From positions 2,046,001-2,110,000 of the forward strand of contig JAJQJQ010000017.1 in NCBI GenBank assembly GCA_028622995.1: 64,000 nucleotides of DNA, given 5' to 3'. This DNA comes from Panagrolaimus kolymaensis (taxonomy: Eukaryota > Nematoda > Chromadorea > Rhabditida > Panagrolaimidae). This document shows positions 40,807 to 45,578 of the stretch, piece by piece (positions within the stretch are counted from its first letter, which is position 1; every line of letters starts with the position of its first letter). Position numbers and translations under genes: made by a program. The notes under the pieces were generated by a model. That model was not told where the DNA came from. It saw nothing but the letters and a program-made list of their open reading frames with translations, and made no database searches.

Positions 40807-40927
40807 TTTTGCTTCGGTTGGTATTTTTGTTGCAAAACTAATAGTCGAAATAAAATTTTTACTGTAAATGAGAGATACAAAAATGGAAAAATTTAAATAT
40901 TACCCAAAAATTTGTTTGTTTTTTTAA

Positions 40928-41789
40928 AAGCCATTTTTTCTAGGAATCGCACTTTTTCGATGGATTTTGGGATTTGAGAAAAAAATAAATTTCGTAAATT
41001 GACTTTTGTTCAATCCCCCTTAGGTTTTCGGGGTCGCTGATGCCGAATCTGACCTCAGTTTCATTGGTTTCATAGGTATATCTCGAGATACAGCTGCCTT
41101 GATCAAAAAATTCAACTTTTTTTTAAGACGCTTTTTTTAAAAACTGTCTACACAGAAAAATAGTAAAAAATTCACTGATTATTTTTGTAATTGATGCCAA
41201 AAATACAAGTATAGGCTTAATGAGGTCAAACAGCCATTTTAAGGAAAAATTCAACGTTTCGCTTGGCAAAACTCGAAATCTATGGCCGCTGGCAAGCCTA
41301 TTGATGTCATATTCTGATTCCCCATAAAATTTCACCCTAGAAACAGGAAAATGTAAAAAAAAAATGGGTGGCCATTTGGAAATGGTGACTGGTTGAATGA
41401 TGTACACCAATATGAGGTCATAGAACAAGTATATCATAAGCACATGTGAAAATTATAAAATCTTAACAAAAAATGTAGTAAAACCCATAAAATAATTTTA
41501 GAAACTGAAAAAACTTCATGTTGTTATGCTTTTTGATTTTTTCTGAATTTTTTAAGGTACTATAGTAGCATAAGATGCACAAAAATATCAAAATACGCAA
41601 AAGTTAGAATTTTTTTTTGAAAGTTATCGTTTCTAAGTAAATTTGAAGTTGTAGAAACCGAATTTGCCATCATTTTTATGCAAATTCTATCATGAAATTT
41701 CATTAATGATCAAATAATAATCTCCCAATATTATTCAAAATTGTTGAAAATAAATTATGTTTTTGTTTTTTTATTATTTTTTCTTTTTA
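40928..41789 (-). repeat. left terminal inverted repeat of the 4.4-kb element
   Basis: Reverse complement of 44513-45365. It contains an outward-reading 106-codon frame (41123-41443) starting MLMIYLFYDLILVY. That frame is probably not a gene: it lies wholly within the repeat, is F/L/I-rich and has no splice or family support. The inner edge is where the match stops, in a T-rich run. Confidence 0.88.
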
Positions 41790-41903
41790 CATACATGTGT
41801 TAATTATTATTTTAATAGCAAATTTGCTACTGGCCGTCTTTTATCTAGATTATCTTATTTAATAATAATTTAAAAATTCTATAAATTAAAAAACAAAAAT
41901 TTA

Positions 41904-43127
41904 TTATCTTCGTATAAAACCGAAACAAGTAAAAACATGGGAAATACAAGAAAATAATAATACAACAATACTAATAACAATAAGAAGCCCAAATAAAAAT
42001 GTTAAAAACTGCCAATGTTCTTTAACAAAATTTACACAACCATCGATAAAAGACATAATAAAGTTAGTTCCTTGAGATTCTTCTTTTTTGTGACGTGTCT
42101 CGACTTTAAGATCGCTTTCGAGAGCCTCCTGATCTTTCTCCAACTTTATTCTATCACTTTCATCCATTTTCGTTTCAAAAGTGTGATATGTAATTTTAGT
42201 TGGAATATCACTAAATCCATAAAAAGTATGATTTCCTACATGAAGAACTTCATTTTTTCGGAGAACAACAGTAAACTTTCCAGAAGATGGAACTGTAAAA
42301 CTGTTTTTCATTCTTGTGGGCGCGTTCTTAGGCAATACAGAGAAAGTCTGGAAAAAACTTTAAAAATTTGCATGTGCATAAAAATAAAAAATTACCTTGA
42401 AATTTGTTACAATTTGAATAGTTGATTCATGTTGATGATATCGGATAAATCCTTCTTCGATTTTAAATGATTGCTTTTCACATTTATTGACATTATCGGG
42501 ATTGCACTCGGGGTATGATACAGCTGATATTGTGCATTTGTCTTCAGTTGCGCATTGGTAATAATCTAGCACAGCCCATTTTCCATTAATATTAACAAAG
42601 CGCGAAGGGAAAAGGGGTTCGGTATAAATATCATCTTTGATGGTGCCAAGAATTTGGAACTAAAAATTTAAATTTAAAATAGTTTAATCATTATTTTTTT
42701 ACTGACCTCATAAACTTCATTCTTTTCAAGTTCTCCACCGGAAATCATGGCATGATGAACAATAATGGAATCATTCGTGCATCCAGCAATTTTATTGTTA
42801 ATATTCAAAAGATTTGAATGTTCATCATAAGAGGAGAGAACATATTTCTCATTATAAGTTGTCCAATTATAGGTGGAACCAAACATATCAAGAATAGTTG
42901 ATGCAGCTTCAGAATGGTAAGTTGCAAGTAGTTGGGTAAAGAATCTTTTTTCTTCATTTCTCAAGGTAATTTCAATTAGATCTTTCGTTACCTGCGTTTG
43001 GTCTTTCATAAAAGCATGAAGATCTTCACTGATTTCCGAAAGTTTGTTATCATGAATAAAAGCCATGTATCCAAGGCCAGCAATCGATGCTACAATTAAA
43101 ACTGATGCAATAACAGCAGGTAAAAAT
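41904..43127 (-). CDS. membrane glycoprotein-like cargo protein with N- and C-terminal TM helices
   Basis: Three exons are supported: about 42705-43127, about 42398-42660 and 41904-42350. The N-terminal in-frame segment is hydrophobic (LPAVIASVLIVASIAGLGY) and has no ATG before a stop, so a first exon or unusual start is missing; the first ATG after it is at 43066. A helical stretch follows (ISEDLHAFMKDQTQVTKDLI). The ectodomain has N-glycosylation sites (NWTT, NHTF) and a Cys cluster (YYQCATEDKCTISAVSYPEC). A charged membrane-proximal helix leads to a C-terminal TM segment (FLTFLFGLLIVISIVVLLF) and a short tail ending FGFIRR. The layout recalls envelope-type glycoproteins, but no known family is recognised and the likeness rests on topology only. 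Confidence 0.65.
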
Positions 43128-43145
43128 CTATATTCTTATATCAAA

Positions 43146-44295
43146 ATGGCTACAGAGGAAACACCCGAAACTGAAGGATATGAATTTTGGAGAACGAAAA
43201 ATTCAATAACCAAAAAAGTGACAAAGCCAAAAGAAAAAAATTCCCCAAGTGAAGGTGAAAGCGATAACGATGATGTGGATAATGTTCACGAAATTATTAA
43301 TTTTGAAAAAAGTCAACCATCCTTCAATCCCTTTGCTTTATTCCAATGCCCAACTCCAAATTGTCAAAAACAGTATGCTAAAATAGGAAATTTATTGAAT
43401 CATATTGATCTTGGAAAACACAAATTATTACCGGAAAAAGCTCGCCTTTATGATTATGCTTTGAATTATTATGGCGACCAATTAGAAGGATTACAAAAAC
43501 GACAAGATAACTCACGCCTTCAAGAAAAAATTGAAGAATCGGTTAAAGAAGTAAATACAGATGTGAAACAAGGATGGGCACTAAGGGTAACCACAAAGAA
43601 TACAAGATTTACCAGTGATGTGCACAAATTCGTTGAAGAGCAAATGGAATATTGTAAATCCCATGGCAAAAGATTGGACCCAAAAAAATGTGAGAAAAAT
43701 ATGGAATTGGAAAAAAAGAAGGATGGCAAGCGCCGTTTTAAAGCGAATGAGCGTTTATCATCAAACCAGATTTCTTCGCTAGTAATAAGAAAAATGAAAA
43801 AAGCAAGTGGCGACAATGTAACAAGTAACGAAAAAAATAAACAGGATCGAAGAAATGCCATTAATAAAGAATTAGAAGAAGAAACAGGTAAAATTAATAC
43901 AGAGCTTTTATATTTTTTAAATCGATCATAATAATTATTTGTTAATCTTGGAGAAAAATTAAAAAAAAACCACATGAAACTAATATTTTTTTATTATAGG
44001 AGATATGGAAATTGAATTTCAAGATGATCCTTTGTTTCCCGATATTTTCGAAGATATACACAGTTTTACTAAGGAAAGTAAGAAGATTAGAAAAGATAAA
44101 ATAGGCGAAGAATCTGAAGAGGAGGAAGAAACTGAAGAAGATCAAGAAACTGGTGAAGAGGAAGAAGACGAGGAAAATATCCAGCCCTCAAAAAAGCAGA
44201 AAGGTGCGCCTCCAAAAACACCTTTAAAAAGATTACGACAAAGAATTAGTTCACCTCGAGATAACCCACCAAAAACAAAAACAAGTAAAAAATAG
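43146..44295 (+). CDS. C2H2 zinc-finger protein of a repeat-associated type, cargo of the 4.4-kb element
   Basis: Two exons (43146 to about 43888, and about 44000-44295); the splice joins EEETG to DMEIEFQ in frame. After an acidic N-terminus comes one C2H2-like finger (CPTPNCQKQYAKIGNLLNHI then DLGKHK). Then LYDYALNYYGDQLEG and a block QGWALRVTTKNTRFTSDVHK, GKRLDPKKCEKNMELEKKKD, LSSNQISSLVIRKM follow. From memory, this finger plus GWALK...RF...K.DP...NGNRLF...SKQI..FFSRL pattern recurs in many uncharacterised, multi-copy proteins of cnidarians, molluscs and fish. The tail is strongly acidic (a run of Glu) then basic (PKTPLKRLRQRIS), suggesting a nuclear DNA- or chromatin-binding protein. No nuclease or DDE motif is seen. 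Confidence 0.75.
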
Positions 44296-44512
44296 CCAAA
44301 TATTTTGTACTGTCATTTTATATTTATGTTGTTCTATTTAAAAAAAATAAAATATTTAAAGAAATTTTTTTGATTTTTGGTAAATCAAGGTATAATAAAT
44401 TGAAAATCGTAAATTAAGGAAATCATAATATGATTTAACAAAATTTTTAAACAAAGTACAAATATTTAACAAACAAAAAAATAAGCTTAAAATTGACATC
44501 AGTGAAAACAAA

Positions 44513-45365
44513 AAAAAGAAAAAATAATAAAAAAACAAAAACATAATTTATTTTCAACAATTTTGAATAATATTGGGAGATTATTATTTGATCATTAATG
44601 AAATTTCATGATAGAATTTGCATAAAAATGATGGCAAATTCGGTTTCTACAACTTCAAATTTACTTAGAAACGATAACTTTCAAAAAAAAATTCTAACTT
44701 TTGCGTATTTTGATATTTTTGTGCATCTTATGCTACTATAGTACCTTAAAAAATTCAGAAAAAATCAAAAAGCATAACAACATGAAGTTTTTTCAGTTTC
44801 TAAAATTATTTTATGGGTTTTACTACATTTTTTGTTAAGATTTTATAATTTTCACATGTGCTTATGATATACTTGTTCTATGACCTCATATTGGTGTACA
44901 TCATTCAACCAGTCACCATTTCCAAATGGCCACCCATTTTTTTTTTACATTTTCCTGTTTCTAGGGTGAAATTTTATGGGGAATCAGAATATGACATCAA
45001 TAGGCTTGCCAGCGGCCATAGATTTCGAGTTTTGCCAAGCGAAACGTTGAATTTTTCCTTAAAATGGCTGTTTGACCTCATTAAGCCTATACTTGTATTT
45101 TTGGCATCAATTACAAAAATAATCAGTGAATTTTTTACTATTTTTCTGTGTAGACAGTTTTTAAAAAAAGCGTCTTAAAAAAAAGTTGAATTTTTTGATC
45201 AAGGCAGCTGTATCTCGAGATATACCTATGAAACCAATGAAACTGAGGTCAGATTCGGCATCAGCGACCCCGAAAACCTAAGGGGGATTGAACAAAAGTC
45301 AATTAACGAAATTTATTTTTTTTTTGAAATCCCAAACCAAGTGCGATTTTTAGAAAAAATGGCTT
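44513..45365 (+). repeat. right terminal inverted repeat of the 4.4-kb element
   Basis: Inverted copy of the left arm, including the identical 106-codon outward frame (44858-45178). Outermost differences include GTGCGATTTTTAGAAA here against TCTAGGAATCGCAC on the left, and a short block next to it that does not align base for base. Confidence 0.88.
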
Positions 45366-45578
45366 TTAAACAAGCTTTTTATTTTATTTGCATGCATCAG
45401 ACTTTTTGTTTTAGAGCTTTTATAATAACTTTATTTTTCAATTCATATTTTTACTAATTTGTTAAAAAGTATTTAAAATGATTTTTTGTAAAATGATAAA
45501 AAATATTATTATAATCCGTTGTGAATAAATTTAAAAAAATAAAGTGTTTAAAAATTTCTACTAAAAAATGACAAATTT

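What the first reader, a model, noticed from the sequence alone, without database searches (positions are those of the whole stretch)
40924..45369. A 4.4-kb TTAA-bounded element with very long TIRs and two cargo genes but no transposase
Arms of about 0.85 kb enclose a divergent pair: a two-TM glycoprotein-like gene and a C2H2 zinc-finger gene. The pairing of long TIRs, an envelope-like membrane protein and a repeat-associated zinc-finger protein does not match any standard DNA transposon I know. It could be a virus-like mobile element or a cargo-bearing derivative of a larger one, moved by a piggyBac-type enzyme that uses TTAA.
Basis: partly seen in the sequence, partly recalled or inferred. 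Interest (0 to 1): 0.88.

Follow-up and report, generated by a model that had tools for sequence, protein, structure and literature searches.

The report
Transposon remnant with glycoprotein gene
This 4.4-kb stretch is a likely internally deleted copy of a DNA transposon family, probably in a nematode; related copies encode a protein predicted to be a transposase that folds like a retroviral integrase, and several carry predicted membrane-glycoprotein genes, an unusual pairing that could make some of these jumping genes virus-like.

The parts
40924..40927 (.). left target-site duplication TTAA
   Evidence: single TTAA in the uninterrupted sites L064 and L065
40928..41788 (+). left terminal inverted repeat, begins 5'-AAGCCATTTTTTCTA
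   Evidence: repeated genome-wide
41904..42347 (-). last exon of the membrane-glycoprotein gene, with C-terminal transmembrane segment
   Evidence: 92% aa identical to the C93 copy over 41907-42335
42396..42659 (-). glycoprotein exon 4, cysteine-rich ectodomain
   Evidence: 97% aa to C93, 55% and 47% to two host paralogues
42707..43137 (-). glycoprotein exon 3, short of its first three bases; holds the internal hydrophobic segment. Exons 1-2 (predicted signal peptide) are missing here but present in C93
43137..43138 (.). junction where homology to the glycoprotein gene (C93) stops and homology to the transposase gene (C81) starts; inferred internal-deletion end join
43140..43887 (+). truncated exon of the transposase gene (C-terminal part), donor GT at 43888
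   Evidence: 76% aa to the matching part of C81 exon L031:3699-2518
43347..43421 (+). C2H2 motif C-x4-C-x12-H-x5-H
   Evidence: read from the translation; the profile of homologues matches C2H2 fingers
44000..44295 (+). last exon of the transposase gene, acidic/basic tail and stop
   Evidence: 70% aa to C81
44513..45365 (-). right terminal inverted repeat, ends GGCTT-3'
45366..45369 (.). right target-site duplication TTAA

Best explanation
The element is a likely internally deleted, non-autonomous copy of a long-TIR DNA transposon family: its zinc-finger gene is the last third of a gene that a 7.3-kb relative with the same ends carries and that is predicted to be a DDD transposase with a retroviral-integrase-like fold, and its glycoprotein gene is the 5'-truncated end of a predicted membrane-protein gene that another copy carries whole. 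Shown: the arms, the TSD, two uninterrupted sites, the family, the homology break at 43137/43138, and both relatives. Inferred: a parent element carried the two genes head to head; an end-joining deletion removed the catalytic domain, the promoter region and the first two glycoprotein exons; transposase from another copy recognises the AAGCC ends in trans, cuts the element out and pastes it into an NTAN site (TTAA preferred), leaving a 4-bp duplication. The glycoprotein most likely is a member of a host gene family captured at DNA level (matching introns) and kept by selection in the element lineage (dN/dS 0.24) before the window copy lost its 5' end. Neither remnant here is likely to make a normal protein.
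For: Arms and ends. Genome copies, including two ~2.05-kb deletion derivatives 97-99% identical to the window in shared parts (C1, C8) and 26 foldback copies of 1.5-1.6 kb. Uninterrupted sites. TSD equal in 15 of 17 copies, 0 of 20000 shuffled pairings as good. Chimeric match: window 40912-43137 to C93 at 91%, 43138-45368 to C81 at 78%; junction sequence. C81 gene of 8 exons, 1119 aa, no internal stop. Homologues. Fold. D at the places of P0003 D336/D417/D458 in every aligned homologue with a letter there (12, 10 and 11 of 13). C93 glycoprotein gene, 5 exons, 482 aa. dN/dS 0.24 (0.14-0.39) glycoprotein and 0.18 (0.12-0.25) transposase C-term. Host paralogues.
Against: No copy examined holds both genes complete, so the head-to-head parent is reconstructed from parts. 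C81 is only 78% identical to the window in the shared part (dS 0.8), so it is not the direct parent. C81's N-terminal exons are interrupted by about 170 bp relative to C94, so C81 may not be fully intact. Its own flanks differ by one base (ATAA/ATAT). Foldseek alone gave no match at E <= 0.001; the AF2 model has mean pLDDT 65, and the ten residues around D458 average 56. A second conserved acid nearby (E/D at P0003 449) could be the third catalytic residue instead of D458. Transposition, expression and protein function are not observed.
Confidence: 0.82

Rival explanations
1. A cargo-bearing element mobilised by a piggyBac transposase at TTAA.
For: TTAA on both sides here; 8 of the 17 copies examined have TTAA/TTAA.
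Against: Seven of the 15 copies with equal flanks use ATAA, TTAT, ATAT or TTAC, so TTAA is preferred, not required. The relative with the same ends carries its own DDD-type gene; no piggyBac Pfam hit in six of its ORFs or in the seven homologues scanned. The ends are AAGCC.
Confidence: 0.05
2. A lineage of the Kolobok superfamily.
For: Kolobok makes TTAA duplications and ends in 5'-RR...YY-3' (PMC9587614, passages seen); this family starts AA and ends TT and prefers TTAA.
Against: The C/DxxH signature is absent within 260 residues after the second D in 9 of 9 homologues with SDNA or CDNA there (four of 13 were not tested: three lack the stretch, one reads SDQA). In the model the third acidic residue sits on the helix right after strand 5, without an insertion.
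Confidence: 0.1
3. A virus-like element: the glycoprotein is an envelope or fusogen that lets the transposon spread between cells or animals.
For: C93 copy: predicted signal peptide, internal hydrophobic segment absent from the aligned host paralogue, seven NxS/T sites, C-terminal TM, dN/dS 0.24. Eight sister transposase copies have another glycoprotein ORF upstream.
Against: The gene is related to host loci; at the one examined no TIR was found. No match at the thresholds used in Pfam, PDB sequences, the protein database or viral contigs. No capsid, polymerase or packaging gene seen among the ORFs of the 7.3-kb copy.
Confidence: 0.12
4. The glycoprotein is a passive captured host gene fragment, as in Pack-type elements.
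For: Host family at two loci with three copies each; matching introns.
Against: Whole 482-aa gene in C93 with no stops, and dN/dS 0.24 between two element copies; remnants of the same gene in three further copies show it travels with the element.
Confidence: 0.3

Closest known systems
Retroviral/Gypsy integrases and Ginger DNA transposons
   Same: RNase H-like catalytic core; retroviral integrases fill the 50 rows shown in the structural comparison; 4-bp TSD as in Ginger (PMC2836005, passages)
   Different: No rve Pfam match, ends AAGCC instead of TGTNR, C2H2 finger after the core, much longer TIRs
Kolobok
   Same: TTAA-type 4-bp TSD and RR...YY termini (PMC9587614, passages)
   Different: no C/DxxH signature found, predicted integrase-like core without insertion
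Tm1 Mutator/Foldback family of root-knot nematodes (PMC3169594, passages)
   Same: nematode foldback family with long TIRs, few transposase copies and many short derivatives
   Different: 9-bp TSD and MULE/FLYWCH transposase there; 4-bp NTAN and an integrase-like protein here
Nematode Mavericks/Polintons with a putative fusogen (meeting report PMC10680173, one passage)
   Same: a nematode DNA transposon with an integrase-like enzyme, acquired genes and a membrane protein
   Different: 4-8 kb, no capsid or DNA polymerase seen, glycoproteins without a match in the searches made
P-element KP-type and MITE deletion derivatives (recalled)
   Same: internal deletions leave non-autonomous copies, some with a truncated DNA-binding part of the transposase
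   Different: here the finger lies at the C-terminus

Membership tests
TIR DNA transposon (cut-and-paste type) | terminal inverted repeats, multiple copies, TSD, empty site | tested here: met
TIR DNA transposon (cut-and-paste type) | related copy encoding a DDE/D-type transposase | tested here: met
   C81 gene, predicted RNase H fold and acidic triad in homologues; catalysis not tested
piggyBac | TTAA target site | tested here: not met
   as a strict rule: 8 of 17 copies TTAA/TTAA, 7 equal with other NTAN, 2 unequal; met as a preference
piggyBac | DDE_Tnp_1_7 transposase (PF13843) | tested here: not met
   no such hit for six C81 ORFs or seven of 13 homologues; genome-wide family search did not complete
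Kolobok | 5'-RR...YY-3' termini | tested here: met
   AA...TT ends; definition
Kolobok | TTAA-specific TSD | tested here: inconclusive
   4 bp, TTAA in 8 of 17 copies; the paper says one Kolobok lineage has no strong target preference
Kolobok | C/DxxH between second and third catalytic residues | tested here: not met
   0 of 9 testable homologues, searched within 260 residues after the second D
Ginger | TGTNR termini and Gypsy-like integrase (rve, H2C2) | tested here: not met
   ends AAGCC; no rve hit
Sola (Sola3 is recalled to use TTAA) | Sola transposase signature | not testable with these tools
   no Sola sequence or profile held; the recalled defining paper is not held
Tm1/Mutator | 9-bp TSD and MULE domain | tested here: not met
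   4-bp TSD; no MULE hit
Maverick/Polinton | DNA polymerase and capsid genes | tested here: not met
   in the 7.3-kb C81 copy only: one transposase gene and a glycoprotein scrap; larger copies not sought

The most novel reading that the evidence does not exclude
An unnamed lineage of nematode DNA transposons moved by a retroviral-integrase-like DDD enzyme has repeatedly taken on membrane glycoproteins: one on the opposite strand (window, C93), and in sister copies a signal-peptide-ectodomain-TM module whose tail splices in frame into the transposase, so that splicing versus intron retention would yield a membrane-tethered transposase or a free glycoprotein. These would be the DNA-transposon counterpart of retroelements that gained env, poised between transposon and virus.
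Probability: 0.2. Interest if true: 0.92.

Novelty: new variant of a known kind. Interest (0 to 1): 0.62.

Why it matters
It resolves an apparently transposase-less element into a derivative of a transposon family whose transposase got no Pfam transposase hit here although homologues occur in at least three other nematode genera. Two unrelated glycoprotein genes tied to one transposase family is a pattern known for retroelements (recalled) and Mavericks; my nine paper searches listed no report of it for short TIR transposons. It gives a concrete test of how DNA transposons acquire membrane proteins, and of whether such proteins help them spread.

Tried and rejected
Zinc finger as independent cargo: rejected, its reading frame from codon 43140 on aligns to the C-terminus of the C81 transposase. 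Glycoprotein only in the window: rejected, a whole copy lies in C93 and 3' scraps in C1, C8 and C81. Searches for the element glycoprotein: protein database, none at E <= 0.001 among 7996 candidates; Pfam, best E 0.08; PDB sequences, best E 0.27; viral contigs, 88 pattern matches, none a relative. The second glycoprotein's best Pfam hit is TMEM154 at E 7e-4, below that family's cut-off. A viral-contig scan with the transposase alignment could not start. Foldseek alone ranked acetyl-CoA carboxylase first (E 0.0026), HIV-2 integrase second (E 0.0035) and many Argonautes next, none at E <= 0.001; only VIA-align singled out integrases. Kolobok, Ginger, Tm1, Maverick and piggyBac were each weighed (Membership tests). 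Sola could not be tested. Root-knot nematodes as the host came from recall; no call confirmed a genus. I did not fold the glycoprotein: the alignments are too shallow. Papers: passages of PMC3169594, PMC9587614, PMC2836005, PMC5199201, PMC10294476 and PMC10680173; the rest as search listings only.
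Full report
OBSERVATION. The inverted arms are real: 40965-41788 pairs with 44513-45336 over 824 nt at 99%, and the outer 40920-40954 with 45339-45373 at 91%. The element proper is 40928-45365 and starts 5'-AAGCCATTTTTTCTA; the TTAA copies are 40924-40927 and 45366-45369. The genome is 265.8 Mb in 807 contigs and the window is C16:2046001-2110000. The flanks match two other contigs, C39 and C15, at 98-99%; both carry the uninterrupted sequence with a single TTAA where the window has the element. I infer that the insertion is younger than the separation of these three sequences; precise excision from the other two is the alternative.

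FAMILY. The left arm matches 66 places (40 of 284 first-look candidates were scored, so this is a lower bound). Of these, 62 pair into 31 two-armed copies: 26 of 1.5-1.6 kb with 93-114 bp between the matched arms, two of about 2.05 kb (C1, C8; 97-99% identical to the window in shared parts), C93 (4.46 kb), C81 (7.3 kb) and the window; 4 matches are single arms. I examined 17 of the 31 at both ends. In 15 of 17 the 4-bp flanks are identical: TTAA in 8, ATAA in 2, ATAT in 2, TTAT in 2, TTAC in 1. C81 and L039 differ at one base each. No shuffled pairing of flanks in 20000 did as well (that table has 18 rows, one a spurious second left end in L041, which I dropped from the 17 and which counts as unequal in the shuffle test). 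Targets are thus NTAN with TTAA preferred.

THE TWO GENES. Window 43138-45368 aligns with C81 (L031 3270-1014, 78%) and window 40912-43137 with C93 (L032 5975-3765, 91%). The switch is abrupt at 43137/43138. In C81 the right half is the 3' part of a minus-strand gene of eight exons with GT-AG introns, 1119 aa and no internal stop. Homologues and C94 extend further at the N-terminus; in C81 the matching exons lie upstream but are interrupted by about 170 bp, which I left as it is. The window keeps 347 codons, including the C2H2 finger, but not the catalytic core. In C93 the left half is the 3' part of a five-exon gene for a 482-aa protein with, by hydropathy, a signal peptide, an internal hydrophobic segment and a C-terminal TM, and seven NxS/T sites. 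The window keeps 378 codons, lacking exons 1-2. The two truncated ends abut, with no room for promoters. I read this as an internal deletion of an element that once held both genes head to head. C81 keeps a scrap of the glycoprotein 3' end beside its arm, which supports that layout, but no complete two-gene copy was found.

SELECTION. Between the window and C93 the glycoprotein has dS 0.135, dN 0.032, ratio 0.24 (bootstrap 0.14-0.39); the transposase C-terminus between the window and C81 has dS 0.81, dN 0.14, ratio 0.18 (0.12-0.25). Both genes were constrained for most of the time separating the copies. One pair was compared for each.

GLYCOPROTEIN AND HOST GENES. Own-genome searches found relatives of the glycoprotein at two loci with three copies each on C2, C9 and C17. 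One locus lies among trehalase and beta-eliminating lyase ORFs, and no inverted repeat longer than 34 nt was found in the three 9.9-kb stretches around it; the other locus was not examined for TIRs. The C93 and host proteins are 39% identical. In my gene models the four introns of the C93 gene have counterparts of the same phase in the host gene, three at the same aligned place and one within a residue. The element version has a hydrophobic segment that the aligned host protein lacks. I infer DNA-level capture of a host gene; the reverse direction is not excluded.

A SECOND GLYCOPROTEIN. In the C94 sister element, whose one arm I read and which has the same GGCTT end, a different ORF lies between arm and transposase: an NxS/T-rich ectodomain, one TM and a short tail. 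Its matches (19 rows, 18 places) include 8 places lying 1.9-2.4 kb upstream of, and on the same strand as, a catalytic exon: C94 twice, C7, C36, C58 twice, C26 and C31. These are 8 of 37 transposase matches, or 8 of the 27 with E <= 2e-22; they include the six long matches at 79-82% identity to C81, while the 93% fragment on C76 and C81 itself have none. Ten rows are not near a transposase match, among them two sets of three contigs that may be homeologous loci (not tested). Five rows show one stop; the query's last residues run into the intron described next, so such a stop may lie there. The C58 copy at 862920 begins with a hydrophobic signal-peptide-like stretch; the C94 copy has lost it. 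In C94 a 45-nt GT-AG intron would join the tail in phase 0 to the transposase N-terminal exon. The divergent C58 copy has an intron of 48 nt at the same place and phase, followed by an open exon, but I could not read on into its transposase. Three of 13 homologues' database gene models (P0004, P0005, P0012) also start with a hydrophobic signal-peptide-like stretch. Automatic models may fuse neighbouring genes, so this supports linkage more than fusion.

MECHANISM. Shown: insertion with a 4-bp duplication, the chimeric deletion structure, coding relatives. Inferred: mobilisation in trans by the family transposase through the AAGCC arms. Internal deletions would explain the series 7.3 > 4.4 > 2.05 > 1.6 kb.

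KNOWN KINDS. Kolobok shares TSD preference and termini (PMC9587614, passages) but its C/DxxH signature was not found in 9 of 9 testable homologues. Ginger (PMC2836005, passages) and Tm1 (PMC3169594, passages) differ in ends, TSD or domain. A piggyBac enzyme is not needed. Sola cannot be tested here. Nine paper searches listed no description of such an element; they cover open-licence PMC papers only. Nematode Mavericks with a putative fusogen are the nearest precedent I saw for a membrane protein on a DNA transposon (PMC10680173, one passage).

HOST. Nematode is inferred from the transposase relatives and short introns; three syntenic copies suggest a triploid-like genome. No genus was established.

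Noticed in passing
L060, L061, L062 (C9, C2, C17): The same gene block (trehalase, glycoprotein paralogue, beta-eliminating lyase) occurs three times, the glycoprotein gene at about 90% nucleotide identity, as expected of a triploid-like genome; the window's flanks are 98-99% identical between three contigs.
   Followed up: partly
L033, L034, L035 (C93): C93 holds several 96-100% identical pieces of the C93 element, one of them cut inside the glycoprotein, next to an 1112-aa PIF1-helicase ORF (Helitron type is my guess) that lies partly in inverted 2.3-kb arms; rearrangement, capture or assembly duplication.
   Followed up: partly
L031:5838-6011: About 170 bp interrupt the transposase N-terminus in C81 relative to C94; extra intron or damage not resolved and left as it is.
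   Followed up: no
L065:1109-1319 (C15, right flank of the empty site): The C15 flank carries about 190 extra bases with a 99-nt inverted repeat (97%) that the window lacks, perhaps another small insertion.
   Followed up: no
P0004, P0005: Panagrolaimus transposase gene models start with a signal-peptide-like stretch and a DGSGSG-rich part that recalls chondroitin proteoglycan sites (recalled).
   Followed up: no
window:19001-20000: One kilobase of 45% GC with strong skew in a window of about 31% GC.
   Followed up: no
window:45579-46724: The element lies beside a 6-phosphogluconate dehydrogenase gene (PF00393).
   Followed up: yes
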